Source: Siphonodentalium dalli
Taxonomy: Eukaryota > Mollusca > Scaphopoda > Gadilida > Siphonodentaliidae
Assembly (NCBI GenBank): GCA_032622095.1
Contig: CP136066.1
Location: 98,353,319-98,417,318 of the forward strand
Direction: 5' to 3'
Length of the DNA: 64,000 nucleotides
The notes beneath the pieces were generated by a model. It saw only the letters and a list, made by a program, of their open reading frames with translations. It had not been told where the DNA came from and ran no database searches. Every line of letters begins with the position of its first letter. Within the stretch, counting starts at the first letter, position 1. Shown one piece after another: positions 7,150 to 63,825 of the stretch. The translations under genes and the position numbers were made by a program.

Positions 7150-8376
7150 TTTTGGGGTGTTGGTGTTTGACCCCACCTGACCTTGACCTTCAAAATGGTC
7201 AATTCAAGGTCAAAGCCCGGACGAAGTCGGGTCACCTTCTAGTGTTTATATAATTACTTGCCAACAACCGTCTACGAGCAACGTTAATTATGATTGGTTA
7301 TGATAAACGCGATCATCCAATCGCTACATAGGCGGCTCGGAAGACGAGATCAAGAGGTCATAGCGCCTGTCAAAGGTCAAGATATTTATGGGAACACATG
7401 TGTTCGTTCAATAGTATTGCAGATTCAAAGCTCCCCCAGCATCGAATGTGTGTGTATGTTTCATGCAGAGCCAACTGGCTTGGTCGCTTAGTGACCTACG
7501 CCCACTGACCTTATACATCATGCTAGGATAGGATAGGATATCATAGGATAATATTTTATTTCACATTGTACGTTAATGCATTATAATATAAGTGAATTAT
7601 TATACGTATCGTGTGGAGTGCCGTCTACCCGACACACATGATTGATAGAATACAATCAATAATGGCTACATAAATAATTTAAAAATTTCACTATAATTTT
7701 CAGATTTGATTGATATTTAAATTGTATTTAGATATAAATATGGATTCCAGCGAATAAACAAATATGTTTCAGATGGGTGGATATAAATGGATATGAATGG
7801 ATATGCAACGGTTAATTTTCTCAATGACAAATTATGGAGTATTTTTTGGCTGCATTTACTGAGGGGTATTAATAAGAATTTGCTCACACACTACATAAAG
7901 TATGTTCAACAGTCGTTTAAAATAATATCGGTTCTTTAAAACTTGTCAATGTGTGAACAAACCCCAGCGCGCTAACTTATGAATAATGCAATTAAATGTA
8001 TTATTCGTGTATAAATGTCACAGTTGAATGCCCTTATTATTTACAACCAGGCATTGGACGAGATATGTTTTTAAATCAATGTGCACTTAATTTTAAATCA
8101 GTTATGCGCGCATGCTCACTCGGAATAGCCCATGTATCTCTACAAATCGATTGGCTCCAATGAGTGAGGTGCTAGGGCCGATATGACTCCCGACGACTGT
8201 TTGGAGCGGACGTACCATCTTAAACATATATCAGTTCCATGTTGTCACCCGTCAAAAGTAACTGTTGACTGTCTTGTATCCCTCGATAATTTTGATTGTA
8301 TGTTTGTGTGGAGAAATTCTGCTCTGTGAGCGAAATATCAATACTTGTGTCAGTTTCACATAAACGTCAGTGGAGG
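7150..8376. other. Stretch upstream of the 8.4 kb exon, no gene seen
   Basis: Contains a small GGATA-type repeat at 7521-7548 and otherwise AT-rich sequence. Any promoter of the following exon should lie here, but I recognise no TATA box in a decisive position. Confidence 0.35.
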
Positions 8377-8671
8377 ATGACCCGAAACGATGTGGTTCGC
8401 GTATGCGCATTGGCGCTTGTGACATTAATTCTTAAAAATCAGATATGTTTTGGACTTTCTGGAAAATGTGACTTTGTGGCATATTCTGGAGTGGTCACGC
8501 CTGTGGTTACACGAAACCTCACTACCAACCATTGTGTGAGCAGAGTAAAGTGTGCGACAATGTGTTGTGAGACTTCTTGGTGCCAGCTCATACGTTATGA
8601 TAAATATCTGGCTGCTTGCTTTATGTCGCAGGGGAATCGTGGAGGTCATACGGGAGTTATGATAAAAAGAG
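8377..8671 (+). CDS. First coding exon of a small secreted cysteine-rich (PAN/apple-like) protein
   Basis: The frame starts at the ATG at 8377. I prefer it over the upstream in-frame ATG at 8296 because a hydrophobic leader (VCALALVTLIL) follows at once, as in a signal peptide. The mature part has cysteines in the order C...C...C..MCC...WC...C, with SWCQLIRYD before the last one, reminiscent of PAN/apple modules in which paired cysteines pin a helix to a sheet. A good donor (AAAGAG|GTGAGG) ends the exon at 8671 in phase 1; the open frame beyond it is intronic. A decayed copy of its second half lies 220 bp downstream. Later exons were not found. A PAN-like fold is inferred from spacing only; another disulfide-rich secreted family is possible. 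Confidence 0.55.
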
Positions 8672-8894
8672 GTGAGGCATTTATATGGTTCACATTATTC
8701 TATGGGACTCGTGAGTATGAAACTCACCGGTTCTTATAGTTTCTTAGAAACTTCTTCACGAATATATATTTAGTTTTAGTCAAGTTAGGCTATATACCCA
8801 ATTACGAGTTGGTAAATTGGATAAATATGAATGTGTATCAACATAAAAGTGTATAAAATAGGCTATTTCAATCTATAACTATTTGTTTATGTAG

Positions 8895-28400: not shown

Positions 28401-31400
28401 GCCCCCCCCCCCCGACGCTGAATAAAGTAAGCCTTCTAACACGCCCCCCCAACGCTGAATAAATTAAGCCTACTAACGCCCCCCCCAACGCTGAATAAAG
28501 TAAGCCTTCTAACGCCCCCCCCCCCCCGACGCTGAATAAAGTAAGCCATCTAACACGCCCCCCCCCAACGCTGAATAAAGTAAGCATACTAACGCCCCCC
28601 CCAACGCTGAATACAGTAAGCCTTCTAACGCCCCCCCCCCAACGCAGAATAATGTAAGCCTACTAACGCCCCCCCCAACGCTGAATACAGTAAGCCTTCT
28701 AACGCCCCCTCGACGCTTAATAAAGTAAGCTTTCTAACGCCCCCTCGACGCTTAATAAAGTAAGCCTTATAACGCCCCCACCCGACGCTTAATACAGTAA
28801 GCCTTCTAACGCCCCCTCGACGCTTAATAAAGTAAGCCTTCTAACGCCCCCCCCCCGACGCTTAATAAAGTAAGCCTTCTAACGCCCCACCCCGACGCTT
28901 AATAAAGTAAGCCTTCTAACGCCCCCCCCCCCGACGCTGAATAAAGTAAGCCTTATAACGCCCCCCCCCCCCCCCACGCTTAATAAAGTAAGCCTTCTAA
29001 CGCCCCCACCCCGACGCTGAATAAAGTAAGCATTCTAACGCCCACCCCGACGCTTAATAAAGTAAGCCTTCTAACGCCCCCCCCGACGCTTAATAAAGTA
29101 AGCTTCCTAACACCCCTCCCCCCGACGCTTAATAAAGTAAGCCTTCTAACGCCCCCCCCCCCCGACGCTTAATAAAGTAAGCCTTCTAACGCCCACCCCG
29201 ACGCTTAATACAGTAAGCCTTCTAACGCCCCCACCCCCGCCCGACGCTTAATAAAGCCTTCTAATGCCCACCCCGACGCTTAATACAGTAAGCCTTCTAA
29301 CGCCACCACCCCGGCCCGACGCTTAATAAAGTAAGCCTTCTAACGCCCACCCCGACGCTTAATACAGTAAGTCTTCTAACGCCCCCACCCGACGCTGAAT
29401 AAAGTAAGCCTTCTAAAGCCCACCCGACGCTTAATAAAGTAAGCCTTCTAACGCCCACCCCGACGCTTAATACAGTAAGCCTTCCAACGCCCCCACCCCC
29501 CGACGCTGAATACAGTAAGCCTTCTAACGCCCCCGCCCAACGCTTAATAAAGTAAGCCTTCTAACGCCCACCCCGACGCTTAATACAGTAAGCCTTCTAA
29601 CGCCCCCCACCCCGCCCGACGCTTAATAAAGTAAGCCTTCAAACGCCCACCCCGACGCTTAATACAGTAAGCCTTCTAACGCCCACCCGACGCTTAATAC
29701 AGTAAGCCTTCTAACGCCCCCGCCCGACGCTTAATAAAGTAAGCCTTCTAACGCCCACCCCGACGCTTAATACAGTAAGCCTTCTAACGCCCCCACCCGA
29801 CGCTGAATAAAGTAAGCCTTCTAACACCCCCCCGACGCTTAATAAAGTAAGCCTTCTAACGCCCACCCCGACGCTTAATACAGTAAGCCTTCTAACGCCC
29901 ACCCGACGCTTAATACAGTAAGCCTTCTAAAGCCCCCGCCCGACGCTTAATACAGTAAGCCTTCTAACGCCCACCCGACGCTTAATACAGTAAGCCTTCT
30001 AACGCCCCCACCCGACGCTTAATACAGTAAGCCTTCTAACGCCCACCGACGCTTAATACAGTAAGCATTCTAACGCCCCCGCCCGACGCTTTATAAAGTA
30101 AGCCTTCTAACGCCCACCCCGACGCTTAATACAGTAAGCCTTCTAACGCCCCCACCCGACGCTGAATAAAGTAAGCCTTCTAACACCCCCCCGACGCTTA
30201 ATAAAGTAAGCCTTCTAACGCCCACCCCGACGCTTAATACAGTAAGCCTTCTAACGCCCACCCGACGCTTAATAAAGTAAGCCTTCTAACGCCCCCCCCC
30301 CGACGCTTAATACAGTAAGCCTTCTAATGCGGAACCCCCCGACGATGCATAAAATAAGCCTTCTAACGCCCCCTCCCCGACGCTTAATAAAGTAAGCCTT
30401 CTAACACCCCCCCCCCCGACGCTTAATAAAGTAAGCCTTCTAACGCCAACACCCCGACGCTTAATAAAGTAAGCCTCTAACGCCCCACCCCCGACGCTTA
30501 ATAAAGTAAGCCTTCTAACGCGGGCCCCTCCGACGCTTAATAAAGTAAGCCTTCTAACCTCCCCCCGACGCTTAATAAAGTAAGCCTTCTAACGCCCCCC
30601 CCCCTACGCTTAATAAAGTAAGCCTTCTAACGCCCCCCCCCCCCCCGACACTGAATACATTAAGCCTTCTAACGCCCCCCCCCCCCGACGCTGAATAAAG
30701 TAAGCCTTATAACGCCCCCCCCCCCCGACGCTGAATAAAGTAATCCTTCTAACGCGGAACCCCCGACGATGCATAAAGTAAGCATTCTAACGCCCCCCCC
30801 CCCCCAACACTGAATACATTAAGCCTTCTAACGCTCCCCCGACGCTTAATAAAGTAAGCCTTCTAACGCGGGCCCCTCCGACGCTGAATAAAGTAAGCCT
30901 CTGAACGCGGCCCCCGACGCTGAATAAAGTATGCCTTCTAACACCCCCCCCCCCCCCCCGACGCTTAATAAAGTAAGCTTCCTAACGCCCCTCCCCCCGA
31001 CGCTTAATAAAGTAAGCCTTCTAACGCACCCCGACGCTGAATAAAGTAAGCCTTCTAACGCCCACCCCCCGACGCTTAATAAAGTAAGCATTCTAACGCC
31101 CCCACCCGACGCTGCATAAAGTAAGCCTTCTAACGCCCCCCACCCGACGCTGCATAAAGTAAGCCTTCTAACGCCCCCCCCCCGCCCCGACGCTTAATAA
31201 AGTAAGCCTTCTAACGCCCCCCCGACGCTTAATACAGTAAGCCTTCTAACGCCCCCCCCCGACGCTTAATAAAGTAAGCCTTCTAACGCGGGCCCATCCG
31301 ACGCTGAATAAAGTATGCATTCTAACGAGCCCCCCCCCCCCGTCGACGCTGCATAATGTAAGCCTTCTAACACCCCCCCCCCCGTCCGACTCTTAACAAA

Positions 31401-31972
31401 AAATAAGCCTTCTAACGCCTCCCCCGACGCTTAATAAAGTAAGCCTTCTAACGCGACCCATCCCCACGACGCTGCATAACGTAAACTTTCTAACGCCCCC
31501 CCCCCCCGACGCTTAATAAAGTAAGCCTTCTAACGCGGAACCCCCCTCCCCGACGCTTAATAAAGTAAGCCTTCTAACGCACCCCGACGCTTAATAAAGT
31601 AAGCCTTCTAACGCCCCCCCCCCCCGACGCTTAATAAAGTAAGCCTTCTAACGCCCCCACCCGACGCTTAATACAGTAAGCCTTCTAACGCCCCCGCCCC
31701 CCCGCCCGACGCTTAATAAAGTAAGCCTTCTAACGCCCCTACCCGACGCTTAATAAAGTAAGCCTTCTAACGCCCCCCCCCCCCGCCCGACGCTTAATAA
31801 AGTAAGCCTTCTAACGCCCCCCCCCGCCCGACGCTTAATAAAGTAAGCCTTCTAACGCCCCCACCCGACGCTTAATACAGTAAGCCTTCTAACGCCCCCC
31901 CCCCCCCGCCCGACGCTTAATAAAGTAAGCCTTCTAACGCCCCCACCCGACGCTTAATAAAGTAAGCCTTCT
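13489..31972 (+). repeat. Minisatellite array, main block with higher-order duplications
   Basis: This continues the same ~34-40 bp unit. Sub-blocks differ in the start of the unit: AACGCTGAATAAAG dominates at about 13.5-18.2 kb and 26.4-28.7 kb, while GACGCTTAATAAAG or GACGCTTAATACAG dominates at about 18.2-26.4 kb and 28.7-31.97 kb. Rare units mark large-scale copying. CGGAACCCCCCGACGATGC occurs at 19821, 22771, 25282 and 30330. AACGCAGAATAATG occurs at 18211, 21149 and 28641. Spacings near 2.95 kb, 2.51 kb and 5.05 kb recur for independent markers, showing segmental duplication of multi-unit blocks. From span over unit length, both blocks together hold very roughly 570-600 units. Confidence 0.97.
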
Positions 31973-38688: not shown

Positions 38689-39083
38689 TGTGACCCGCCA
38701 TATCAAATCCAGTCGGAAGTCGGGATTTTTTTTACCCTGTGCCAATACAATTTTTTACGATTTTAATAATTTGTTCTTGTATTCTTTAACAATTTTTATA
38801 ATTTCACCAATACAGAGCCCCAGACAAACATGAGCAGACGACACTCTTCTATGTGCTTCTATATATGTGTGGGGCTCCCTGCAGGATAATGGATGTTTTT
38901 TTATTTTATGTCCTAAAAATTGTAAGAAACATTTATTTAAAAAACATGATAAAAAATTGTTAAGCCAATGTATTCTCTTATATATGCGAGGCGACCTATG
39001 GTCGACTCGCATATATAAGAAAATGCATTGGCACAGGATAAAAAATTCCCGACTTCCGACTGGATTTCATATGGCGGGTCACA
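38689..39083 (-). mobile_element. MITE with TGTGACCCGCC ends and a subterminal hairpin (copy 1)
   Basis: Inverted ends TGTGACCCGCCATATCAAAT extend over about 45 bp. Inside the right end lies a strong hairpin: CCAATGTATTCTCTTATATA, then GCGAGGCGACC, then its complement ending GCATTGG. The element is matched by 61990-62450 in opposite orientation. That copy has such a hairpin at both ends, so this one has lost the left one. Confidence 0.88.
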
Positions 39084-39249
39084 TTTGTTTAGCCATGCGT
39101 ATAGTCTGAAAGTTGTGGTAGTGTCGGCCGGGGTCTGATTTTACCAACACCGTTATACGGTGGCAATAGACATGTACTGCGTGTATATTACTTTGAGTCA
39201 CATTTGGATATCAGGGGAGAGGTACTGATAAGTTTTCGAGTTTAATTAT

Positions 39250-44542: not shown

Positions 44543-45046
44543 CCTCTTAATAGGTGATTCACTCAAAACACCATAGGTGTTCTATTTATTATACGTTTTA
44601 ACCATATCGATACTTATTTGTAATGTATTAATACTCCTTAATTAATGCCAATTATTTCTCACAAAGCGTACATAACAGTTCAGTTGAAAATTGATTGTTG
44701 TTGTCACCAGCTGATAGTCAACGAACCACTTTCAAATGGCTACAAATTAGTCTTCCGCTAAAGAAAATATTTCCCACAAATTATCAAATAATTATGGACG
44801 AATGCTAATTTAATATCCTAAAACAACATAGTCGGATTATTCAGAACTATTTTTGACCATGGATACCTACCATCCACAATAATAATGTTAGCCCGAAACA
44901 TTAGCAAGGGCAATAAATACCTGGGGTACATCGTAGAGTGCCCCCTCTTCCACAAATATTTTGGACGGCTCATAATTACAGTCTAATAGATATACGAAAG
45001 ATTGATTCCAGATTTGTTAGTCATAATAATATATGTATCTACTTAC
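44543..45046. other. Probable intron of the minus-strand cysteine-rich gene
   Basis: Lies downstream (minus strand) of a good donor at 45046-45041. No acceptor or second exon was convincingly found in it. Confidence 0.35.
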
Positions 45047-45364
45047 CGGGTTTCTTTGGTAAATATATGCTGTATCCCCCTTTGTCGTCAGTGTCGTAAT
45101 ATTTTGTGTTGAGCATGAGCTTAGAATGCAGTTGTCAGGTCCCGCACGTTCTGTGGTGTACGTGGCAGATTTGCAAACTTGATATTTCAGACACAAGCCT
45201 CCACACTCAATGTCGCTCTCAGCGGAAACTGATTGTGTATTGGTGAAGTTTGTCGTCTTTCCTGGCACTATCTCAAAAGTCGCGCTTTGTAGTGTTATGC
45301 ATCTACAGCCAATTAATAGAGTTATTAGACACACCAACAGAAAAAGTTTCTGACATCCAGCCAT
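45047..45364 (-). CDS. First coding exon of a secreted PAN/apple-like protein
   Basis: The frame opens at the ATG at 45364, chosen because MAGCQKLFLLVCLITLLIGC is a textbook signal peptide; an in-frame ATG six codons upstream would displace it. The mature segment has IECGGLC, then VCKSATY, then NCILSSC. This is the spacing expected for a PAN/apple module, in which ECAxxC...C...C disulfides frame a small sheet for binding protein or sugar. The exon ends at 45047 with ACCCG|GTAAGT, a strong donor, in phase 0 after 106 codons; the open frame beyond is intronic. Later exons are not identified. It is not obviously homologous in sequence to the plus-strand exon at 8377, though both are short, secreted and cysteine-rich. 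Confidence 0.65.
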
Positions 45365-46138
45365 CGTATATACACTTGACAAGACTAATCAACATATAAC
45401 GTTGGTTCAATCGCTGTGAAATCTCAAATATAATTATTTGTCCACAATGCATCTCGTTCATTGTCTCAATAAACTCCCAGTTCTCGGGTCTGAACCATTC
45501 AATATTATCAGACCTTTGTGTCTTTGTGTGATGAATTCACAGGATTTAAGCCAGTGTGTATTTCCTCATATAACTGCCACGCTCCGAGTAAACCAAGTAG
45601 TTGAACCGTGATTTATAAAGCGAATGGTTGTGGCGATGCCATGGATGTCTTCCGGCCAAGCACAATATCGAAAATGCAACTTGTGCCGTCGTCATGGTCG
45701 CCGAAGACTTGAATGTTTCAAGCTGCTATAGCAATATTGATTCACTCAAAACGAAATGAAAACAATTCGTTGAGATCTATATATAAAGGTCACCATTAAT
45801 GTCTTATTTCTGCATGACCGTTATCGTCAATGCACTATTTAAAAAAAACAATTAAAACAAAACACGAGAGATGAATGCACCAGACCCAAGCTGGGCTAAT
45901 ATCACTGACTATATATATACGGTCACCCAACACGCACGTCCCGTTCGACATGTCCCTGTATTGTGTTGATTGATAAACCAGCTGGTCGGGTCTCAGTCGA
46001 CGGCGATATGGATTCCGGGCCAGCTACCACACAATCGCTGACTATATTATAATTAATCTGCCTTCAAAATTATATATCATTTATCGTGATAAAAAAGGTA
46101 AGGTGATGATACAATCGTTTAATATATTGTTTACATAC
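45365..46138. other. Upstream region of the 45.3 kb exon and candidate intron of the 46.3 kb exon
   Basis: No repeat or further exon recognised; any promoter of the 45.3 kb gene should lie here. Confidence 0.35.
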
Positions 46139-46656: not shown

Positions 46657-46760
46657 TTACAGAGTGACTGATTGTAAATTTGAGGTGATGGCTTCATCAA
46701 CTCTTGATGCCAAATCCTCTTCTTCTCTGTCAGACTTCGTGAGCATTTGTTCACACTCAC
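46657..46760 (-). pseudogene. Possible carboxyl-terminal coding fragment cut by a MITE
   Basis: Reading on the minus strand from the MITE border, the frame gives ECEQMLTKSDREEEDLASRV, then about 13 more residues and a TAA. It is charged and helical in character, unlike nearby noncoding sequence. Upstream the frame runs into the MITE end at 46764. It may be the last codons of a gene broken by insertion, or an exon whose alternative end is the donor-like CTCT|GTAAGA inside the same stretch. No family is recognised. Confidence 0.25.
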
Positions 46761-47036
46761 TTAAAGGTACTCGATTCGATCAGACGGTCCATATACCATC
46801 AATATACAACAACAACATTTCTTCAAAATACTGCTAACCCATGTCAACTATGGTATCAAATTTCCCAAAACTTGTTATTTATCAACATTTTGTTCAACAA
46901 AATATGGCCATATTATCACTAAAGTATCACGAAATTTGACTGTATTACCACTTGATTTTAGAGTTATCCATCTTCAATTTTACCCGAGACCCTCCGTTTG
47001 TCCACGTGTTTCTGGGCCACATATTATTACACATCT

Positions 47037-47044
47037 CGAGAAAT
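47037..47044 (+). other. Left target-site duplication of the foldback element (CGAGAAAT)
   Basis: CGAGAAAT directly precedes the element's first base and recurs directly after its last (57062-57069). In the related MITE at 60617 the equivalent stretch, read in reverse complement, is CATCTCGAGAAAATAACAAA, uninterrupted. Confidence 0.93.
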
Positions 47045-47449
47045 CGGTGTGACTAATTACCGCCCGGGACCGCCCGGGGACCGCCCGGGGACCGCCCGGG
47101 ACCGCCCGGGCGGCCCAACGAGCCCGTGGACACAATATCTCGACGGTATAACGTAGCGACATGCCACCTGAGGGCAACATAGAAAAATTTACTCGCTCGC
47201 TCGTCTCCGGCCGGTCATATTAACCCCACAAATGCCGATATTGGCTAAAAGAGCCTGGGTGATTACTGGTGTCTTCGTGTGTGTTCAGACAGATTATTTT
47301 GGTGATTCTCGGTAGTGCAATAAGTGCAATACACCTGAGTGTTAATTCCATGTATTGACTCGTTGACGCGTCCACGGCCGATGTTATTAACCCCTCAAAT
47401 TCCGGTAAAATAGTGTATAAACAAAAGAACCTTGGAACCGCCCGGGACC

Positions 47450-49004
47450 GCCCGGGCGGCCCCATGGGCCCGTGGACACTATATCTCGACGTTATAACAT
47501 AGCGACATACCCCACGAGGTCAACATACAAAATGTTACTCCCTCGCTCGACCCCGGCCGGCGTTATTAACCCCTCAAAATCCGATAAAATGGTAAATAGA
47601 CAAAAAGAACATTAGGACCGCCCGGGACCGCCCGGGTGGCCCCACGTGCCCGTGGACACAATATATCGACGTTATAACGTAGCGACATACCCCATGAGGT
47701 CAACCTAGAAAATGTTACTCGCTCGCTCGACCCCGGCCGGTGTTATTAACCCCTCAAAATCCGACAAAATGGTATATAGACAAAAAGAACATTGGGACCG
47801 CCCGGGACCGCCCGGGTGGCCCCACGTACCCGTGGACACAATATCTCGACGTTATAACGTAGCGACATACCCCATGAGGTCAACCTAGAAAATGGTACTC
47901 AATCGCTCGACCCCGGCCGGTGTTATTAACCCCTCAAAATGGTAAATAGACAAAAAGAACATTAGGACCGCCCGGGACCGCCCGGGTGGCCCCACGTGCC
48001 CGTGGACACAATATCTCGACGTTATAACGTAGCGACATACCCCACGAGGACAACCTATAAAATGTTACTCGCTCGCTCGACTCCGACCGGTGTTATTAAC
48101 CCCTCAAAATCCGATAAAATGGTATATAAACAAAAAGAACATTGGGACCGCCCGAAACCGCCCGGGAGGCCCCATGGGCCCGTGGACACTATATCTCGAC
48201 GTTATAACGTAGCGACATACCCCATGAGGTCAACCTAGAAAATGTTACTCGCTCGCTCGACCCCGGCCGGTGTTATTAACCCCTCAAAATCCGATAAAAT
48301 GGTATATAAACAATAAGAACATTGGGACCGCCCGGGAGGCCCCATGGGCCCGTGGACACTATATCTCGACGTTATAACGTAGCGACATACCCCACGAGAT
48401 CAACCTACAAAATGGTACTCGCTCGCTCGACTCCGGCCGGTGTTATTAACCCCTCAACATCCGATAAAATGGTATATAAACAAAAAGTACATTGGGACCG
48501 CCCGGGAGCGCCCGGGAGGCCCCATGGGCCCGTGGACACTATATATCGACGTTATAACGTAGCGACATACCCCACGAGGTCAACCTACAAAATGGTACTC
48601 GCTCGCTCGACTCCGGCCGGTGTTATTAACCCCTCAACATCCGATAAAATGGTATATAAACAAAAAGAACATTGGGACCGCCCGGGACCGCCCGGGACCG
48701 CCCGGGAGGCCCCATGGGCCCGTGGAGACTATATCTCGACGTTATAACGTAGCGACATACCCCATGAGGTCAACCTAGAAAATGTTACTCGCTCGCTCGA
48801 CCCCGGCCGGTGTTATTAACCCCTCAAAATCCGATAAAATGGTATATAAACAATAAGAACATTGGGACCGCCCGGGACCGCCCGGGACCGCCCGGGAGGC
48901 CCCATGGGCACGTGGACACTATATCTCGACGTTATAACGTAGCGACATACCCCACGAGGTCAACCTACAAAATGGTACTCGCTCGCTCGACTCCGGCCGG
49001 TGTT
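47450..49004 (+). repeat. Left-arm ~180 bp tandem units of the foldback element
   Basis: Units contain ATATCTCGACGTTATAACGT, CTCGCTCGACCCCGGCCGG, TGTTATTAACCCCTCAAAAT, GGTATATAAACAAAAAGAAC and then one to three copies of the 10 bp subrepeat GACCGCCCGG. Unit length is 180 bp where complete; 10 bp losses (such as the missing CCGATAAAAT near 47940) give 170 bp units. Since 180 is a multiple of three, a repeated 60-residue peptide frame stays open across units, but 10 bp length changes break it repeatedly. There are no start, splice or domain signals, so it is not called as a gene. Confidence 0.95.
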
Positions 49005-52000
49005 CTTTTTGTTTATATACCATTTTATCGGATTTTGAGGGGTTAATAACACCGGCCGGAGTCGAGCGAGCGAGTAACATTTTGTAGGTTGACCTCGTGG
49101 GGTATGTCGCTACGTTATAACGTCGAGATATTGTGTCCACGGGCACGTGGGGACACCCGGGCGGTCCCAATGTTCTTTTTGTCTATATACCATTTTGTCG
49201 GATTTTGAGGGGTTAATAACACCGGCCGGGGTCGAGCGAGCGAGTAACATTTTCTAGGTTGACCTGATGGGGTATGTCGCTACGTTATAACGTCGAGATA
49301 TTGTGTCCACGGGCACGTGGGGCCACCCGGGCGGTCCCGGGCGGTCCTAATGTTCTTTTTGTCTATTTACCATTTTATCGGATTTTGAGGGGTTAATAAC
49401 GCCGGCCGGGGTCGAGCGAGGGAGTAACATTTTGTAGGTTGACCTCGTGGGGTATGTCGCTATGTTATAACGTCGAGATATAGTGTACACGAGCCCATGG
49501 GGCCTCCCGGGCGGTCCCGGGCGGTCCCAATGTTCTTTTTGTTTATATACCATTTTATCGGATGTTGAGGGGTTAATAACACCGGCCGGAGTCGAGCGAG
49601 CGAGTACCATTTTGTAGGTTGACCTCGTGGGGTATGTCGCTACGTTATAACGTCGAGATATAGTATCCACGGGCCCATGGGGCCTCCCGGGCGTTCCCGG
49701 GCGGTCCCAATGTTCTTTTTGTTTATATACCATTTTGTCGGATTTTGAGGGGTTAATAACACCGGCCGGGGTCGAGCGAGCGAGTATCATTTTCTAGGTG
49801 GGGTATGTCGCTATGTTATAACGTCGAGATATAGTGTCCACGGGCCCATGGGGCCTCCCGGGCGTTCCCGGGCGGTCCCAATGTTCTTTTTGTTTATATA
49901 CCATTTTGTCGGATTTTGAGGGGTTAATAACACCGGCCGGGGTCGAGCGAGCGAGTATCATTTTCTAGGTGGGGTATGTCGCTATGTTATAACGTCGAGA
50001 TATAGTGTCCACGTGCCCATGGGGCCTCCCGGGCGGTCCCGGGGGACCCAATGTTCTTATTGTTTATATACCATTTTATCGGATTTTGAGGGGTTAATAA
50101 CACCGGCCGGAGTCGAGCGAGCAAGCAACATTTTGTAGGTTGATCTCGTGGGGTATGTCGCTACGTTATAACGTCGAGATATAGTGTCCACGGGCCCATG
50201 GTGCCTCCCGGGCGGTTTCGGGCGGTCCCAATGTTCTTTTTGTTTATATACCATTTTATCGGATTTTGAGGGGTTAATAACACCGGCCGGAGTCGAGCGA
50301 GCGAGTAACATTTTGTAGGTTGACCTCGTGGGGTATGTCGCTACGTTATAACGTCGAGATATTGTGTCCACGGGCACGTGGGGCCACCCGGGCGGTCCCG
50401 GGCGGTCCCAATGTTATTTTTGTTTATAAACCATTTTGTTGGATTTTGAGGGGTTAATAACACCGGCCGGGGTCGAGCGAGCGAGTAACATTTTCTAGGT
50501 TGACCTCATGGGGTATGTCGCTACGATATAACGTCGAGATATTGTGTCCACGGGCACGTGGGGCCACCCGGACGGTCCCGGGCGGTCCCAATGTTCTTTT
50601 TGTCTATATACCATTTTGTCGGATTTTGAGGGGTTAATAACACCGGCCGGAGTCGAGCGAGCAAGCAACATTTTGTAGGTTGACCTCGTGGGGTATGTCG
50701 CTATGTTATAACGTCGAGATATAGTGTCCACGGGCCCATGGTGCCTCCCGGGCGGTTTCGGGCGGTCCCAATGTTCTTTTTGTTTATATACCATTTTATC
50801 GGATGTTGAGGGGTTAATAACACCGGCCGGAGTCGAGCGAGCGAGAACCATTTTGTAGGTTGACCTCGTGGGGTATGTCGCTACGTTATAACGTCGAGAT
50901 ATAGTGTCCACTGGCCCATGGGGCCTCCCGGGCGTTCCCGGGCGGTCCCAATGTACTTTTTGTTTATATACCATTTTGTCGGATTTTGAGGGGTTAATAA
51001 CACCGGCCGGGGTCGAGCGAGCGAGTATCATTTTCTAGGTGGGGTATGTCGCTATGTTATAACGTCGAGATATAGTGTCCACGTGCCCATGGGGCCTCCC
51101 GGGCGGTCCCGGGGGACCCAATGTTCTTATTGTTTATATACCATTTTATCGGATTTTGAGGGGTTAATAACACCGGCCGGAGTCGAGCGAGCAAGCAACA
51201 TTTTGTAGGTTGATCTCGTGGGGTATGTCGCTATGTTATAACGTCGAGATATAGTGTCCACGGGCCCATGGTGCCTCCCGGGCGGTTTCGGGCGGTCCCA
51301 ATGTTCTTTTTGTTTATATACCATTTTATCGGATTTTGAGGGGTTAATAACACCGGCCGGAGTCGAGCGAGCGAGTAACATTTTGTAGGTTGACCTCGTG
51401 GGGTATGTCGCTACGTTATAACGTCGAGATATTGTGTCCACGGGCACGTGGGGCCACCCGGGCGGTCCCGGGCGGTCCCAATGTTATTTTTGTTTATAAA
51501 CCATTTTGTTGGATTTTGAGGGGTTAATAACACCGGCCGGGGTCGAGCGAGCGAGTAACCTTTTTCTAGGTTGACCTCATGGGGTATGTCGCTACGATAT
51601 AACGTCGAGATATTGTGTCCACGGGCACGTGGGGCCACCCGGGCGGTCCCGGGCGGTCCCAATGTTCTTTTTGTCTATATACCATTTTGTCGGATTTTGA
51701 GGGGTTAATAACACCGGCCGGAGTCGAGGGAGCAAGCAACATTTTGTAGGTTGACCTCGTGGGGTATGTCGCTATGTTATAACGTCGAGATATAGTGTCC
51801 ACGGGCCCATGGTGCCTCCCGGGCGGTTTCGGGCGGTCCCAATGTTCTTTTTGTTTATATACCATTTTATCGGATTTTGAGGGGTTAATAACACCGGCCG
51901 GAGTCGAGCGAGCGAGTAACATTTTGTAGGTTGACCTCGTGGGGTATGTCGCTACGTTATAACGTCGAGATATTGTGTCCACGGGTACGTGGGGCCACCC

Positions 52001-55000
52001 GGGCGGTCCCGGGCGGTCCCAATGTTATTTTTGTTTATAAACCATTTTGTTGGATTTTGAGGGGTTAATAACACCGGCCGGGGTCGAGCGAGCGAGTAAC
52101 ATTTTCTAGGTTGACCTCATGGGGTATGTCGCTACGTTATAACGTCGAGATATTGTGTCCACGGGCACGTGGGGCCACCCGGGCGGTCCCGGGCGGTCCC
52201 AATGTTCTTTTTGTCTATATACCATTTTGTCGGATTTTGAGGGGTTAATAACACCGGCCGGAGTCGAGGGAGCAAGCAACATTTTGTAGGTTGACCTCGT
52301 GGGGTATGTCGCTATGTTATAACGTCGAGATATAGTGTCCACGGGCCCATGGTGCCTCCCGGGCGGTTTCGGGCGGTCCCAATGTTCTTTTTGTCTATAT
52401 ACCATTTTGTCGGATTTTGAGGGGTTAATAACACCGGCCGGGGTCGAGCGAGCGAGTAACATTTTCTAGGTTGACCTGATGGGGTATGTCGCTACGTTAT
52501 AACGTCGAGATATTGTGTCCACGGGCACGTGGGGCCACCCGGGCGGTCCCGGGCGGTCCTAATGTTCTTTTTGTCTATTTACCATTTTATCGGATTTTGA
52601 GGGGTTAATAACGCCGGCCGGGGTCGAGCGAGGGAGTAACATTTTGTAGGTTGACCTCGTGGGGTATGTCGCTATGTTATAACGTCGAGATATAGTGTAC
52701 ACGAGCCCATGGGGCCTCCCGGGCGGTCCCGGGCGGTCCCAATGTTCTTTTTGTTTATATACCATTTTATCGGATGTTGAGGGGTTAATAACACCGGCCG
52801 GAGTCGAGCGAGCGAGTACCATTTTGTAGGTTGACCTCGTGGGGTATGTCGCTACGTTATAACGTCGATATATAGTATCCACGGGCCCATGGGGCCTCCC
52901 GGGCGTTCCCGGGCGGTCCCAATGTTCTTTTTGTTTATATACCATTTTGTCGGATTTTGAGGGGTTAATAACACCGGCCGGGGTCGAGCGAGCGAGTATC
53001 ATTTTCTAGGTGGGGTATGTCGCTATGTTATAACGTCGAGATATAGTGTCCACGGGCCCATGGGGCCTCCCGGGCGTTCCCGGGCGGTCCCAATGTTCTT
53101 TTTGTTTATATACCATTTTGTCGGATTTTGAGGGGTTAATAACACCGGCCGGGGTCGAGCGAGCGAGTATCATTTTCTAGGTGGGGTATGTCGCTATGTT
53201 ATAACGTCGAGATATAGTGTCCACGTGCCCATGGGGCCTCCCGGGCGGTCCCGGGGGACCCAATGTTCTTATTGTTTATATACCATTTTATCGGATTTTG
53301 AGGGGTTAATAACACCGGCCGGAGTCGAGCGAGCAAGCAACATTTTGTAGGTTGATCTCGTGGGGTATGTCGCTACGTTATAACGTCGAGATATAGTGTC
53401 CACGGGCCCATGGTGCCTCCCGGGCGGTTTCGGGCGGTCCCAATGTTCTTTTTGTTTATATACCATTTTATCGGATTTTGAGGGGTTAATAACACCGGCC
53501 GGAGTCGAGCGAGCGAGTAACATTTTGTAGGTTGACCTCGTGGGGTATGTCGCTACGTTATAACGTCGAGATATTGTGTCCACGGGCACGTGGGGCCACC
53601 CGGGCGGTCCCGGGCGGTCCCAATGTTATTTTTGTTTATAAACCATTTTGTTGGATTTTGAGGGGTTAATAACACCGGCCGGGGTCGAGCGAGCGAGTAA
53701 CATTTTCTAGGTTGACCTCATGGGGTATGTCGCTACGATATAACGTCGAGATATTGTGTCCACGGGCACGTGGGGCCACCCGGACGGTCCCGGGCGGTCC
53801 CAATGTTCTTTTTGTCTATATACCATTTTGTCGGATTTTGAGGGGTTAATAACACCGGCCGGAGTCGAGCGAGCAAGCAACATTTTGTAGGTTGACCTCG
53901 TGGGGTATGTCGCTATGTTATAACGTCGAGATATAGTGTCCACGGGCCCATGGTGCCTCCCGGGCGGTTTCGGGCGGTCCCAATGTTCTTTTTGTTTATA
54001 TACCATTTTATCGGATGTTGAGGGGTTAATAACACCGGCCGGAGTCGAGCGAGCGAGAACCATTTTGTAGGTTGACCTCGTGGGGTATGTCGCTACGTTA
54101 TAACGTCGAGATATAGTGTCCACTGGCCCATGGGGCCTCCCGGGCGTTCCCGGGCGGTCCCAATGTTCTTTTTGTTTATATACCATTTTGTCGGATTTTG
54201 AGGGGTTAATAACACCGGCCGGGGTCGAGCGAGCGAGTATCATTTTCTAGGTGGGGTATGTCGCTATGTTATAACGTCGAGATATAGTGTCCACGTGCCC
54301 ATGGGGCCTCCCGGGCGGTCCCGGGGGACCCAATGTTCTTATTGTTTATATACCATTTTATCGGATTTTGAGGGGTTAATAACACCGGCCGGAGTCGAGC
54401 GAGCAAGCAACATTTTGTAGGTTGATCTCGTGGGGTATGTCGCTATGTTATAACGTCGAGATATAGTGTCCACGGGCCCATGGTGCCTCCCGGGCGGTTT
54501 CGGGCGGTCCCAATGTTCTTTTTGTTTATATACCATTTTATCGGATTTTGAGGGGTTAATAACACCGGCCGGAGTCGAGCGAGCGAGTAACATTTTGTAG
54601 GTTGACCTCGTGGGGTATGTCGCTACGTTATAACGTCGAGATATTGTGTCCACGGGCACGTGGGGCCACCCGGGCGGTCCCGGGCGGTCCCAATGTTATT
54701 TTTGTTTATAAACCATTTTGTTGGATTTTGAGGGGTTAATAACACCGGCCGGGGTCGAGCGAGCGAGTAACCTTTTTCTAGGTTGACCTCATGGGGTATG
54801 TCGCTACGATATAACGTCGAGATATTGTGTCCACGGGCACGTGGGGCCACCCGGGCGGTCCCGGGCGGTCCCAATGTTCTTTTTGTCTATATACCATTTT
54901 GTCGGATTTTGAGGGGTTAATAACACCGGCCGGAGTCGAGGGAGCAAGCAACATTTTGTAGGTTGACCTCGTGGGGTATGTCGCTATGTTATAACGTCGA

Positions 55001-56690
55001 GATATAGTGTCCACGGGCCCATGGTGCCTCCCGGGCGGTTTCGGGCGGTCCCAATGTTCTTTTTGTTTATATACCATTTTATCGGATTTTGAGGGGTTAA
55101 TAACACCGGCCGGAGTCGAGCGAGCGAGTAACATTTTGTAGGTTGACCTCGTGGGGTATGTCGCTACGTTATAACGTCGAGATATTGTGTCCACGGGTAC
55201 GTGGGGCCACCCGGGCGGTCCCGGGCGGTCCCAATGTTATTTTTGTTTATAAACCATTTTGTTGGATTTTGAGGGGTTAATAACACCGGCCGGGGTCGAG
55301 CGAGCGAGTAACATTTTCTAGGTTGACCTCATGGGGTATGTCGCTACGTTATAACGTCGAGATATTGTGTCCACGGGCACGTGGGGCCACCCGGGCGGTC
55401 CCGGGCGGTCCCAATGTTCTTTTTGTCTATATACCATTTTGTCGGATTTTGAGGGGTTAATAACACCGGCCGGAGTCGAGGGAGCAAGCAACATTTTGTA
55501 GGTTGACCTCGTGGGGTATGTCGCTATGTTATAACGTCGAGATATAGTGTCCACGGGCCCATGGTGCCTCCCGGGCGGTTTCGGGCGGTCCCAATGTTCT
55601 TTTTGTTTATATACCATTTTATCGGATTTTGAGGGGTTAATAACACCGGCCGGAGTCGAGCGAGCGAGTAACATTTTGTAGGTTGACCTCGTGGGGTATG
55701 TCGCTACGTTATAACGTCGAGATATTGTGTCCACGGGTACGTGGGGCCACCCGGGCGGTCCCGGGCGTTCCCAATGTTATTTTTGTTTATAAACCATTTT
55801 GTTGGATTTTGAGGGGTTAATAACACCGGCCGGGGTCGAGCGAGCGAGTAACATTTTCTAGGTTGACCTCATGGGGTATGTCGCTACGTTATAACGTCGA
55901 GATATTGTGTCCACGGGCACGTGGGGCCACCCGGGCGGTCCCGGGCGGTCCCAATGTTCTTTTTGTCTATATACCATTTTGTCGGATTTTGAGGGGTTAA
56001 TAACACCGGCCGGAGTCGAGCGAGCAAGCAACATTTTGTAGGTTGACCTCGTGGGGTATGTCGCTATGTTATAACGTCGAGATATAGTGTCCACGGGCCC
56101 ATGGTGCCTCCCGGGCGGTTTCGGGCGGTCCCAATGTTCTTTTTGTTTATATACCATTTTATCGGATTTTGAGGGGTTAATAACACCGGCCGGAGTCGAG
56201 CGAGCGAGTAACATTTTGTAGGTTGACATCGTGGGGTATGTCGCTACGTTATAACGTCGAGATATTGTGTCCACGGGCACGTGGGGCCACCCGGGCGGTC
56301 CCGGGCGGTCCCAATGTTATTTTTGTTTATAAACCATTTTGTTGGATTTTGAGGGGTTAATAACACCGGCCGGGGTCGAGCGAGCGAGTAACATTTTCTA
56401 GGTTGACCTCATGGGGTATGTCGCTACGTTATAACGTCGAGATATTGTGTCCACGGGCACGTGGGGCCACCCGGGCGGTCCCGGGCGGTCCCAATGTTCT
56501 TTTTGTCTATATACCATTTTGTCGGATTTTGAGGGGTTAATAACGCCGGCCGGGGTCGAGCGAGGGAGTAACATTTTGTAGGTTGACCTCGTGGGGTATG
56601 TCGCTATGTTATAACATCGAGATATAGTGACCACGGGCCCATGGGGCCGCCCGGGCGGTCCCGGGCGGTTCCAAGGTTCTTTTGTTTATA
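49005..56690 (-). repeat. Right-arm ~180 bp tandem units of the foldback element
   Basis: Reverse-complement of the left-arm unit. Unit types recur in order: CGGGCACGTGGGGCCACC versus CGGGCCCATGGTGCCTCC cores, and GTCGAGCGAGCGAG versus GTCGAGCGAGCAAG or GTCGAGGGAGCAAG variants. This gives higher-order structure, with a 3,212 bp tandem duplication (49169-52380 and 52381-55592) and 540 bp three-unit repeats in 54.8-56.4 kb. Confidence 0.95.
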
Positions 56691-57061
56691 CACTATTTTA
56701 CCGGAATTTGAGGGGTTAATAACATCGGCCGTGGACGCGTCAACGAGTCAATACATGGAATTAACACTCAGGTTTATTGCACTTATTGCACTACCGAGAA
56801 TCACCAAAATAATCTGTCTGAACACACACGAAGACACCAGTAATCACCCAGGCTATTTTAGCCAATATCGGCATTTGTGGGGTTAATATGACCGGCCGGA
56901 GACGAGCGAGCGAGTAAATTTTTCTATGTTGCCCTCAGGTGGCATGTCGCTACGTTATACCGTCGAGATATTGTGTCCACGGGCTCGTTGGGCCGCCCGG
57001 GCGGTCCCGGGCGGTCCCCGGGCGGTCCCGGTCGGTCCCCGGGCGGTAATTAGTCACACCC

Positions 57062-57069
57062 CGAGAAAT
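57062..57069 (+). other. Right target-site duplication of the foldback element (CGAGAAAT)
   Basis: Second copy of the 8 bp sequence at 47037-47044, followed by AACTAACTTC. Joining the left flank to this right flank restores a sequence that aligns continuously with the MITE relative near 60770-60800. Confidence 0.93.
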
Positions 57070-57205
57070 AACTAACTTCAAAAATCGATATATGATCACT
57101 CTGAAAATTGATGTGTGGGTTCCTCGACTAGAATCAAATATGTTTTACCCCCGAAGCCAAAGAAATAGTAATTTAGGAGCGTCTGATCTGATTGAGTGCC
57201 TTTAA

Positions 57206-58318
57206 GCAAGCACATTTGGAGCAATGGGCACTCATACTGAGTTCGTGTCTCCATAAATATGACATATTATAATATCACATTTGGTAAATTCATGTAATAT
57301 TTGGGATGAATTGAATAATATTTACACGATATTTTATAAATTGCTGTATTCATGACGACTACTGGTGACAAAAGAGCCATCCCCTTAAATTTTTTAAAAG
57401 ATTAAAGAGAAATAAATTTTACACAAATTGTCTGTTTTAGTTGGATCGACGTATAGCCTAGACTGAATCCCTCACACATCTCGCGCATGTACACATTCGC
57501 TGTGAAGCAGATGCCCCTAATAGCAACCACCAAGGGTGCTTATACCTAAGGCAGGTGAATGACGTCATATATTTTTTTCTATATCCATCAGTGATTTTTC
57601 AAGATCGCGGGTATAGATTTTGGAGAAGTTGTCACGTGACTTCCGGTTAGCAACCGTGTGGAGATTGCAAAAATTCGCGGAATTGGATATGAAGCATCGC
57701 GATAAAAATGAAAGTAACTACTTCACAACTTACGAAAAATTCACATGTGATTTAAGTCTATTAATTTCATTTAGACCAATTTCGTTGGTCAGCTTAATGA
57801 AAACGAAAAATGAAGAAGTCATGACGATAATCCAGACAAGATTTTACAATCCACGACACGTCTTGTCAATTTGGCATGTCGTCTCCGTCGTGACCACTAC
57901 ATGATGTTACATAAATTATTCTTAGCGTTATGTCGCCGAGAAAAGGCAAATTTAAGGCACATCATGTGTGGTTGCTCCACTACGTGTCACGTACGATTCA
58001 TATTATACGAGCACGTATGAGCAGCGTCAGATTGCTAATCTGACTGTCCTATTTGAGATTTATCTGGCCATCACCCAAAAGAGATGGGTGCTTGTGGAAA
58101 CACCCCATTCAAGACACCTCAGTAACATTTCGTGGAAAGATAAGACAACTTGTGTTATATGACAGTAAAATTCATTTAATGTATCAACCACAATCAATGG
58201 AATAGAAAACTTAAACGTCAACAATCAATGTGTATACATGTAGACAGTAAACTTCGACAATCAATGCGTATATATGTAGACAATTATGCAAGCAGTATCA
58301 CTGGTGCACTTTTCAGAG
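57206..58318. other. Stretch without a supported gene
   Basis: A 94-codon plus frame (57620-57904) lacks motifs and splice context. Short repeats TCAATG(T/C)GTATA(C/T)ATGTAGACA occur near 58226 and 58261. Confidence 0.4.
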
Positions 58319-60499: not shown

Positions 60500-61375
60500 T
60501 CAATTTATTACATTGAACAATCAACTTGTTATTTATCAGCTTAGTTATCGAAATCAATTGCTTATTTGTTGTATTGATTAATCAAATTATTATATTGACT
60601 AATTTATCAAACTTAAAGGTACTCAATCCGAACAGAGGGTCCTCTTCTCAACAGATTCCAACAACAACAATCCGACCAGAGGGTCTTATATTACTATTTC
60701 TTTGGCTTTGGGGGTAAAAAATATTTGATTCGAGTCGAGGAACCCATCAAACAAAGCTCAGAGTTATTAGATATTGATTTTTGAAATTTGTTATTTTCTC
60801 GAGATGAGTACTAATAATTGCCGTCAGTTTCGTAACCTGCGCGAGATGTGTACACCAATCACAATTCAAACAGACAAGGATGGATAACTCTAAAATCAAG
60901 AGGTAATAATAACGCAATTTTGACTGAGTTCTGGGCCAGAAAGTATTCCCGATAATGAAAAATAATACATTTCTAAAATCGATATCTAACAAATCTGAGC
61001 TTTGATGGGTGACTTCCTCGACTCGAATAAAATATTTTTGACCCCCAAAGCCATTGAAATAGTAATTGAGAGGAGTTTTATCGGATTGAGTACCTTTAAA
61101 CAATCAAATTTGTTATCTTGATTAAACAACTATGTTATCTTGACTAATCACAATTTATTATCTTGAATAATCAATTGAGTTGTCTTTATTAATCAACTTA
61201 TTATCGATCTTAATTAATCAACTCAACTAACTTTATAAATCAACAAAGATATATTGATTAATCAACTAATTAATTTGTTTAATCACCAGTTTACTTAAAG
61301 TTAATATCATCTATAATTAACTCGGTTATCTTAATTAGACAAATTAACTAACTTCATTATTCAAACTAATTAGCT
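60500..61375. repeat. Diverged AT-rich TTGATTAATCAACT-type tandem repeat, split by a MITE
   Basis: Motifs such as TTATCTTGATTAATCAACTA recur irregularly every ~25-35 bp on both sides of the MITE at 60617-61095. Confidence 0.65.
60617..61095 (+). mobile_element. Intact TTAA-type MITE, AGGTACTCRATYCGA family
   Basis: TTAA lies at 60613-60616 and 61096-61099. Inverted ends are AGGTACTCAATCCGA. The 479 bp body is itself partly palindromic: GGTAAAAAATATTTGATTCG (60712 on) mirrors the segment around 61020-61045, and AAAGCTCAGAGTTATTAGAT mirrors ATCTAACAAATCTGAGCTTT. It is the reference copy for the broken element at 46765-57201. Confidence 0.92.
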
Positions 61376-61989: not shown

Positions 61990-62450
61990 TGTGACCCGCC
62001 GTATCAAATCCAGTCGTAAGTCGGGATTTTTTTAACCCTGTGCCAATGTATTCTCTTATATATGCGAGTCTACCATAGGTCACCTCGCATATATAAGAGA
62101 ATGCATTGGCTTAACAATTTTTTATCATGTTTTTTAAATAAATGTTTCTTACAATTTTTAGGACATAAAATAAAAAAAACATCCATTACCCTGCAGGGAG
62201 CCCCACACATATATATAAGCACATAGAAGAGTGTCGTCTGCTCATGTTTGTCTGGGGCTCTGTATGGGTGAAATTATAAAATTGTTAAAGAATACAAGAA
62301 AACATTATTAAAATTGTAAAAAATTCTTAGGCCAATGCATTCTCTTATATATGCGAGGCGACCTATGGCCGACTCGCATATAAAAGAGAATGCATTGGCA
62401 CAGGGTAAAAAAATCCCGACTTCCGACTGGATTTGATATGGCGGGTCACA
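61990..62450 (+). mobile_element. MITE with TGTGACCCGCC ends and two subterminal hairpins (copy 2)
   Basis: Same family as 38689-39083, opposite orientation. Inverted ends TGTGACCCGCCRTATCAAAT are followed on each side by a hairpin built from CCAATGCATTCTCTTATATA and GCGAG, with a central GACCTATGG-type loop. It lies in the last intron of the TIR gene. TA-rich flanks (TATA left, TACA right) hint at a TA target but do not prove it. Confidence 0.9.
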
Positions 62451-62818
62451 TACATGTATACGCAACAACTCTGTCTCACATTGCTTAACCATTTCTGGAA
62501 GCAGACGAAAGATAACAAACATGCAGAGGAAGTCATATTTATTGGAGGACAATGTTCAGATAGTAAATTCAACAAACGTGGTCGTTTTATTGAACTTACT
62601 ATATCAACATTTTATATGAGAACTACTCGTCGATGAGTATTTACTATAGATAGGGTAAACTAATTTTCGAAAAGCCCGAACTGTATGTGTTCTCTACAAC
62701 CGTATCCACAATTTAAAGATGCTGCCATTTCGAGCTTTCGTGTAGTTTCATGCCGCTGCATTTATGACATCTGCACACCAATGTACTTTGCTACCCAGAC
62801 GCCACATGGTTTACATAC

Positions 62819-62997: not shown

Positions 62998-63825
62998 CTG
63001 GAAAGCAAATTTCAATCTCGTAGTAACCAGGACTCGGTCATAGCCAATCAGAAGGTAGACGCGTGGATGTCTGATGCGAAACGTAGGCGGTGACGTCATA
63101 CTGCGAAGAAAGCCCTAGTATATAGCACTTGTAGTAAAGGGTGTAGTAAAGGGTGTCGGAATGTTTTAGACTATCGAACGCGTAGGCGAGTGGTTATATA
63201 TATAAAACCCTTGGAATCTACTGAATTCATTCTTCAGTTTCTATCCATTTAAATATTGGCATGATATACATTTAATTTAGACGGATATAAGTTAGCAAAC
63301 GACAGTTTAGAGGACAAATTCCGACGATTAATTTTATAATTAAAATAACCAAAATACCATAGGAATCTCTTATCACCCTTCATCTAGTGAGAAATGCTAA
63401 AAAAATGATTTCTAAAATATTTCTGACAAAAGCTAAAGATACAATAATCGCTCCTAAATGACTATAAATTTCATTGGCTTCAGGGTAACATATTTTATTC
63501 GAGTTTGATACCAATTTCCGTTGTTGAACAAAATGTTCATATATAATACTTTTTGGAAAAATTTCTACTAGATTTGACAGTGGTTCGCATTATTTTTGTG
63601 TAATTAATCGATTCTGATGACTAAAGTGTAGTTTGAAGACATATTGTTGTTGGAATCTGATGATACTGGGACCATCGAATCGGATTGTGTCCTTTTAAAT
63701 ATATTTAAATACAAATTAAAGTTATAGAGTTTAAAAAAATCGGCTCGCGAACTTTTTTTTCCAGCATAGTCCAGTGCATGTATTGTTAAGACTCTGAAAC
63801 GCTGCAATATTGTACATAAACTTAC
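62998..63825 (-). other. Intron between the two TIR-coding exons
   Basis: Bounded by GTAAGT (minus strand from 63825) and TTTGCTTTCCAG (ending 62998). A phase 1 intron. The interior is AT-rich with no repeat recognised. Confidence 0.7.

What the first reader, a model, noticed from the sequence alone, without database searches (positions are those of the whole stretch)
47037..57069. A 10 kb foldback transposon with no core, an 8 bp target duplication and a readable empty site
The element is flanked by CGAGAAAT on both sides, has inverted ends (C/G)GGTGTGACTAATTACC, and is otherwise only two opposed arms of ~180 bp units. Removing it and one CGAGAAAT restores CATCTCGAGAAATAACTAAC in the host MITE, which aligns with the reverse complement of the relative at 60617-61095 (CATCTCGAGAAAATAACAAA). 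That is direct structural evidence for transposition of a very large, purely repetitive unit. I know of no described family with this terminal sequence and unit, but could not search.
Basis: partly seen in the sequence, partly recalled or inferred. Interest (0 to 1): 0.9.

Follow-up and report, generated by a model that had tools for sequence, protein, structure and literature searches.

The report
Satellite-armed foldback Mutator-like transposon
This 10-kb stretch is an inserted mobile element built of two opposed arrays of a 180-base repeat and flanked by an 8-base target duplication; its 16-base end occurs 848 times in the same 2.2-Gb (likely animal) genome, and it was likely moved by a Mutator-type transposase encoded in its longer relatives.

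Summary
The element spans 47045-57061 between two CGAGAAAT copies; flanks joined with one copy match two local relatives best. Its 16-base end occurs 848 times (420+428) in the window's 2.2-Gb genome, and exact 8-base duplications flank copies at 50 distinct sites, so it is a transposon family and not a rearranged satellite. All 35 copies read (window included) have opposed arms matching the window's; cores run from none to 12.4 kb. An 18.85-kb copy with an exact duplication carries an open MULE transposase frame, 99% identical to the one characterised here (closest solved fold of its predicted model: the IS256-family ISCth4). The window copy is best read as a non-autonomous foldback MULE. One claim is not supported: that the core-less unit itself moved. 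Ten core-less copies have ten different centre junctions and the window's is unique in the genome, so cores may be lost after insertion. A side result: 49 of 50 exact-duplication sites have one C-GGTG and one G-GGTG end (the 50th T and G), although the arm sequence behind the tip is tied to neither. New family, known kind (compare Tetris, Tm1).

The parts
47037..47044 (+). left copy of the 8-bp target-site duplication CGAGAAAT
   Evidence: empty-site control
47045..57061 (.). whole foldback element, 10,017 bp, no core
47045..47061 (+). left tip, C-end: CGGTGTGACTAATTACC
47059..47110 (+). subterminal decamer array (GGGACCGCCC type); the exact decamer GGGACCGCCC occurs 79 times in the element, 0 times in the rest of the window
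47045..47374 (+). left terminal domain: one diverged unit plus about 115 bp of non-unit sequence
47375..49004 (+). left array, about 9 units of 180 bp
48990..49060 (.). centre where the arms meet, hairpin with a loop of about 44 bp; this junction is unique in the genome at up to 2 mismatches
49005..56731 (-). right array, about 42 units of 180 bp in the opposite orientation
49175..52459 (-). one copy of a 3,285-bp (18-unit) tandem duplication inside the right array
   Evidence: 5 mismatches
52387..55671 (-). other copy of the 3,285-bp duplication (73 bp overlap with the first because the shift is 3,212)
56732..57061 (-). right terminal domain
57045..57061 (-). right tip, G-end (read inward): GGGTGTGACTAATTACC
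57062..57069 (+). right copy of the duplication CGAGAAAT
60617..61095 (-). relative of the host repeat without the element (empty site)

Best explanation
The region is one insertion of a foldback DNA transposon family, whose copies share their ends and opposed arms and sit between exact 8-bp duplications at 50 sites, and it was likely moved in trans by the MULE (Mutator-like) transposase that the longest copies encode. Shown: shared ends, duplications at 50 sites, opposed arms in all 35 copies read, a MULE transposase inside copies with the same ends, and cores of every size from 12.4 kb to none. Inferred: that the transposase binds the decamer-rich tips and arms; that it cuts both ends and inserts with an 8-base stagger; that the arms grow and shrink by unequal exchange like a satellite, as the 3.2-kb near-exact duplication suggests; and that cores are lost again and again by arm-to-arm joining, before or after insertion.
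For: 16-mer end 848 times in the genome, 420 forward and 428 reverse, backward control 0+2. Of 34 pairs fetched from contig C1, 21 have an exact 8-bp duplication; of 43 pairs from further scans outside one shared host octamer, 34 are exact, all different, against 0.8 expected by shuffling. All 34 fetched copies and the window have arm sequence in opposite orientation at the two ends. 21 of 23 cores compared share a match of more than 120 bp with another core, as if cut down from longer ones; for example the 608-bp L037 core is 99% identical to one end of the 12.4-kb core of L065/L066. That core has a 404-aa frame matching PF10551 MULE (E 5.7e-6, 27.1 bits against a cut-off of 27.6) and PF00872 (E 0.0011, also under cut-off); 79 homologues include named proteins from Haliotis, Mytilus, Littorina and the coral Paramuricea; of seven homologues scanned one passes the PF10551 cut-off and two pass PF00872. 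The candidate DDE residues (assigned by position, inferred) are D159 in 18 of 18 aligned rows, D81 in 16 of the 17 rows that cover it, E278 in 17 of 18; the predicted model has them in the RNase H order (mean pLDDT 73.8), and its only PDB matches with E up to 0.001 are four chains of ISCth4. Four near-identical frames exist, three open and one with a stop; the three others are collinear with the L065 core over about 4 kb. The C4 copy spans 18.85 kb between exact GTACCCAT duplications, and a 9.8-kb copy on C8 with exact ATATTTAT duplications holds a 90% identical transposase remnant. The unit is not a large free satellite: 98 of 100 listed exact unit places (C1 up to 108 Mb) lie within 10 kb of an exact terminus, and the genome count of 1,906 is of the size expected from about 4.7 per fetched copy without the window, 5.3 with it.
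Against: No transposition was observed. The window copy itself encodes nothing, so its link to the transposase rests on shared ends and arms. 13 of 34 pairs and 9 of 43 lack an exact duplication (some may be old, some mispaired, rearranged or duplicated with their host). The copy in which the transposase was found (L065/L066) has two mismatches in its octamers; for the C9 and C3 transposase copies only one end lay in the fetched stretches. The frame's own PF10551 and PF00872 scores are under the curated cut-offs. The structural match to ISCth4 is weak by TM-score (0.31-0.37), and the N-terminal part of the transposase lies in a separate frame. Array lengths may contain assembly errors.
Confidence: 0.9

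Rival explanations
1. A local rearrangement of a satellite array that happens to be flanked by an octamer repeat.
For: The inside is almost entirely tandem repeats, with satellite-like higher-order structure.
Against: Same ends with exact 8-bp duplications at 50 distinct sites; of 100 listed unit places only 2 lie more than 10 kb from an exact end; an empty site is readable.
Confidence: 0.01
2. The element inserted with a core and became core-less at this site afterwards (long inverted arms deleting the middle), so that the core-less form has never moved.
For: 10 core-less copies examined, 10 different centre junctions; the window junction is unique in the genome. Long palindromes are known to lose their centre (established knowledge, recalled).
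Against: Only one junction was searched genome-wide; core-less copies with intact duplications are common (11 of 35 copies read have no interior stretch over 25 bp without a match to the arm, 7 of these with exact duplications), and their ends are intact, so nothing visible bars them from moving.
Confidence: 0.5
3. A foldback of another superfamily (P/Galileo, hAT, Merlin, KDZ) with 8-bp duplications; the MULE in L065/L066 is a nested passenger.
For: 8-bp duplications alone fit several superfamilies (recalled); nested elements do occur in cores, for example a LINE reverse transcriptase frame in L047.
Against: Three other near-identical transposase copies are collinear with the L065 core over about 4 kb, one of them between exact duplications, and a remnant lies in the C8 copy; both ends of the 12.4-kb core recur in short-core copies (L056 at one, L035, L037, L050, L057, L058 at the other); MULE duplications of 8-11 bp are the rule (passage in PMC6446971).
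Confidence: 0.05

Closest known systems
Tetris of Drosophila virilis (PMC4079207; abstract, section 10 and part 1 of section 16 read)
   Same: Foldback with a flanking domain and internal tandem repeats (about 220 bp) in the inverted repeats, variable middle, 8-10 bp duplications, array size changes by duplication
   Different: Inverted repeats up to 1,735 bp (here one arm of 8,057 bp); no transposase found there (here a MULE gene inside the family); Tetris repeats also form free satellite arrays, here almost none seen in the part listed; three structurally complete copies there
Tm1 of Meloidogyne (PMC3169594; abstract and passages read)
   Same: Foldback-like inverted repeats with tandem units, MULE transposase, mostly 9-bp (8-10) duplications, and non-equivalent tips (motif A1 at one end, A2 at the other, in 24/39 and 20/22)
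   Different: Units of about 14 bp, not 180 bp; tips differ over 7 bp, here over one base; transposase placed in the Phantom subclass (subclass here not determined)
Drosophila FB/NOF (recalled) and Galileo (abstracts in a search listing, and a passage)
   Same: Foldback architecture with repetitive inverted arms
   Different: FB has short units and 9-bp duplications (recalled); Galileo is of the P superfamily
Sea urchin TU elements (recalled; sea urchin foldbacks are cited in the passage)
   Same: Modular foldback with tandem repeats in the arms and 8-bp duplications (recalled)
   Different: Sequence and transposase not compared; no record was available here
MuDR-6_HM, a cnidarian MULE (one table row seen in PMC6446971)
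   Same: MULE listed with an 'Ovarian Tumour Gene' motif, taken to be OTU; here PF02338 OTU lies in the same 12.4-kb core, E 2.5e-6
   Different: No inverted repeats are listed for it; relationship not tested

Membership tests
Foldback (FB-like) transposons | Long inverted arms made of tandem units, able to fold into a hairpin | tested here: met
Foldback (FB-like) transposons | Arm length varies between the two ends and between copies | tested here: met
   (window 1,960 and 8,057 bp)
MULE superfamily | DDE transposase of MULE type in copies with these ends | tested here: met
   the frame itself is 0.5 bit under the PF10551 cut-off, homologue P0012 above it
MULE superfamily | Target duplication of 8-11 bp | tested here: met
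   8 bp at 50 distinct sites
MULE superfamily | Transposase acts on these ends | not testable with these tools
   needs biochemistry
Autonomous element | Complete transposase gene between intact ends with a duplication | tested here: inconclusive
   C4 copy: exact duplication and an open 402-aa frame for the catalytic part; in L065 the upstream part is a second frame 840 bp away with GT..AG borders, taken as an intron; transcription unknown
Tetris family | Sequence identity with Tetris ends or TIR-220 | not tested
   no Tetris sequence was compared; architecture only
P / Galileo | THAP-type P transposase | tested here: not met
   the transposase found is MULE type
hAT | hAT transposase with 8-bp duplication | tested here: not met
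   duplication length fits, the transposase found does not
Satellite DNA | Large free arrays away from elements | tested here: not met
   98 of 100 listed unit places within 10 kb of an exact end; C1 up to 108 Mb only, the rest of the genome by count alone

The most novel reading that the evidence does not exclude
The two ends of an inserted copy are a matched pair: the base outside GGTGTG is the same on one strand at both ends (C..C or G..G) at 49 of 50 sites, yet the arm behind the tip is free to be of either lineage. This is what would result if the element moves as a circle in which the two ends are separated by one base pair (CACC-S-GGTG) whose two strands are shared out between the new ends, that is, copy-out/paste-in as in the bacterial IS256 relatives, not known to me for any animal MULE; or else the transposase obeys a one-C-end-plus-one-G-end pairing rule.
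Probability: 0.2. Interest if true: 0.75.

Novelty: new member of a known kind. Interest (0 to 1): 0.45.

Why it matters
Foldback elements often lack a known transposase (Tetris is an example). Here one genome holds the whole series, from 18-kb copies with a MULE transposase to a core-less copy of 10 kb that is little but repeats, with hundreds of ends to work with. It shows a repeat array that evolves like a satellite while confined to mobile arms, shows recurrent independent loss of the core, and gives a sharp, cheap test of how such elements move: is a circle with a one-base junction made?

Tried and rejected
Similarity of the 17-base terminus to the internal unit: local score 8, reached by 175 of 1,000 shuffles, dropped. 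Matches of the 16-mer in viral contigs (10) and genome contigs (13) continue with unrelated sequence; a unit pattern gave 0 in viral contigs. Idea that C-ends and G-ends are two inherited arm lineages: on a tree of 46 terminal domains from 23 copies the label needs 16 changes against 15.7 for shuffled labels, 331 of 500 shuffles as low (L046 and L065/L066, with 1 and 2 mismatched octamer bases, were included, as were both L032 and L039 of one host site; L049 was left out as a near-copy of L032). Idea that the two arms of one copy are homogenised with each other: in only 3 of 33 copies compared (L040, L054, L061) is the copy's own other end the best or equal-best match for both ends, so not general. 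Target preference: octamers oriented by end base show no asymmetry by eye in 20 sites; a G/C first base is common (17 of 20 on the + strand), not tested further. Naming the organism: the PAN-domain ORF found no homologue, the LINE reverse transcriptase only unnamed ones among the 120 listed; the named transposase homologues are mostly molluscs and a coral, a hint only. No match in Rfam at gathering scores, no tRNA.
Full report
WHAT WAS CHECKED. The window is contig C6:98353319-98417318 of a 2.23-Gb assembly in 9 contigs. The element sits at 47045-57061 between two CGAGAAAT octamers. Its outer 376 bp match at 371/376 across the two ends, its left arm matches the outer right arm at 93.3% over 1,960 bp, and the inside is an inverted pair of arrays of a 180-bp unit, about 9 units left and 42 right. 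The arms meet at about 49004 with a loop of roughly 44 bp. Joining the flanks with one octamer aligns with two relatives of the host repeat better than with none or two copies (alignment).

A FAMILY, NOT A REARRANGEMENT. The 16-base end occurs 420+428 times in the genome; the same pattern read backwards occurs twice. Only the first 100 places were listed, all on C1. From these I fetched 34 +/- pairs less than 20 kb apart. 21 of 34 have an exact 8-bp duplication; three of these (L032, L039, L049) are the same host site, leaving 19. Four genome scans with the end preceded by an octamer whose first and last bases are complementary (239 ends listed of 265 counted, because one search lists 100 of 126; one search also required C or G as the end base) gave 65 neighbouring pairs. 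22 of them have the octamer GTCCAACC/GGTTGGAC; of the three such copies read, two share all 199 flanking bases on both sides nearly identically and the third shares about 70 and 150 bp, so an element was carried along inside a host repeat. Of the other 43 pairs, 34 are exact and all different, 4 have one mismatch, 5 have two; shuffled partners give 0.8 on average, at most 6. Five of the 34 are already among the 19. With the window and the C4 copy that makes 34 + 14 + 1 + 1 = 50 distinct sites with exact 8-bp duplications.

ANATOMY OF THE FAMILY. All 34 fetched copies and the window have sequence of the window's arm in opposite orientation at the two ends (in the shortest ones little more than the terminal domain); 11 of 35 have no interior stretch over 25 bp without a match to the arm, and the others have cores of 0.3 to 12.4 kb. 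21 of the 23 cores compared share matches with others, mostly at 89-99% identity, a few at 67-88%; L052 and L053 share none. Lengths of the 34 exact pairs run from 170 bp to 12.2 kb. The unit is rare outside: 98 of 100 listed exact 27-mers, on C1 up to 108 Mb, lie within 10 kb of an exact end, and 1,906 in the genome compares with about 1,980 expected from 4.7 per fetched copy (about 2,230 if the window is included) times about 420 copies.

THE TRANSPOSASE. The 12.4-kb core of the 18.2-kb copy L065/L066 has a 404-aa frame that matches MULE (PF10551, 27.1 bits, cut-off 27.6) and Transposase_mut (PF00872, 18.4 bits, cut-off 21), and elsewhere an OTU protease domain (PF02338, above cut-off). 79 homologues were found. 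In an alignment of 18 rows D159 is invariant, E278 is missing in one row and D81 in one of the 17 rows that cover it; their role as the DDE triad is inferred from position. The predicted model has the RNase H order with these residues on an early strand, after a later strand and in a helix behind a helical insert, and Foldseek's only matches at E up to 0.001 are four chains of ISCth4; the paper on it relates it to IS256, states that IS256-family transposases resemble those of MULEs and reports 8-bp duplications (PMC7780238, passages). The catalytic frame and an upstream frame homologous to the N-terminal part of relatives (by reading side by side) are 840 bp apart with CAG|GTATGC and TTTCTAG|G borders, read as an intron (inferred). 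The genome has 110 matches, a lower bound (103 of 1,458 candidates scored); four are 99-100% identical, three with an open frame and one with a stop. The C4 copy spans 18.85 kb with exact GTACCCAT duplications. A C8 copy of 9.8 kb with exact ATATTTAT duplications encloses a 90% identical remnant with one stop.

HOW IT LIKELY WORKS. The window copy has intact ends and a duplication but no gene, so it was likely moved by transposase from the long copies. The decamer GGGACCGCCC, 79 times in the element and nowhere else in the window, is a candidate binding site (inferred). The arrays change like a satellite: the right arm holds a 3,285-bp duplication of 18 units with 5 mismatches, and three-unit higher-order repeats.

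WHAT IS NOT SHOWN. Ten core-less copies have ten different centre junctions (the 211-bp copy L064 was not examined), and the window's junction occurs once in the genome at up to two mismatches. So this copy may have lost its core after it landed. I cannot decide between the two; three more junction searches did not complete.

THE ENDS COME IN MATCHED PAIRS. The base just outside GGTGTG is C at one end and G at the other, read inward, at 49 of the 50 exact sites; the 50th has T and G. In the three scans that allowed any base, the 203 listed ends are 106 C, 96 G, 1 T, 0 A. The 9 non-exact pairs are all C with G. Of the 13 non-exact pairs, 9 are C with G, two have another base (L052, L053) and two are same-type (L047, L060); these last may be ends of different insertions. 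The label does not follow the arm sequence behind it. Two readings remain. Either the tips are non-equivalent, as in Tm1, where two different 7-bp motifs cap the ends (PMC3169594); or the base is the shared spacer of a circle junction, as copy-out/paste-in would leave if one base pair is retained. In ISCth4 and IS256 the spacers are several bases long (6-8, and 5-7 or 19), so this is an analogy only. A paper whose title likens MULE transposition to hAT, Transib and V(D)J recombination (seen in a reference list; not held) suggests cut-and-paste and speaks against the circle reading. Simple inheritance of two tips, with exchange of the arms behind them, is a third and duller possibility.

COMPARISON. 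Tetris is closest in build, Tm1 in transposase and tips. The combination of kilobase arrays of a 180-bp unit, a MULE transposase in the same family and a one-base end polarity did not turn up in my searches (by listing; plus the passages cited), but each ingredient is known, hence a new member of a known kind.

Noticed in passing
9642-11895 and 13494-31972: About 21 kb of a 37-bp satellite (CCGACGCTGAATAAAGTAAGCCTTCTAACGCCCC type) in two arrays.
   Followed up: no
46759-57218 (interrupted), 60617-61095, 63449-63698: Three copies or part-copies of the host repeat that was hit, two of them with TTAAAGGTACTC-like ends.
   Followed up: partly
C1:1973918 and 21 other pairs listed: 22 foldback copies share the octamer GTCCAACC and, in the three read, flanking sequence: a host repeat seems to have carried the foldback to new places.
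   Followed up: partly
one search list, e.g. C1:249192040, C6:180098916: 15 single C-ends with the same octamer CTGTTCAG and no partner end in the list, as if one truncated copy was multiplied inside another repeat.
   Followed up: no
45017-45388 (-) and 8296-8739 (+): PAN_1 domain ORFs (E 4.5e-5, above cut-off; the second weak, under it) in a window with few long ORFs.
   Followed up: no
38755-39140 and 62020-62555: Two copies of a repeat whose mechanical translations share long stretches.
   Followed up: no
L066:991-1554 (-): OTU-like cysteine protease domain inside the transposase-bearing core.
   Followed up: partly
L047, core: A LINE-like reverse transcriptase frame nested in a foldback core.
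   Followed up: no
L001-L006, L008-L010: Nine IMG/VR contigs carry the 16-mer in one identical, unrelated context.
   Followed up: no
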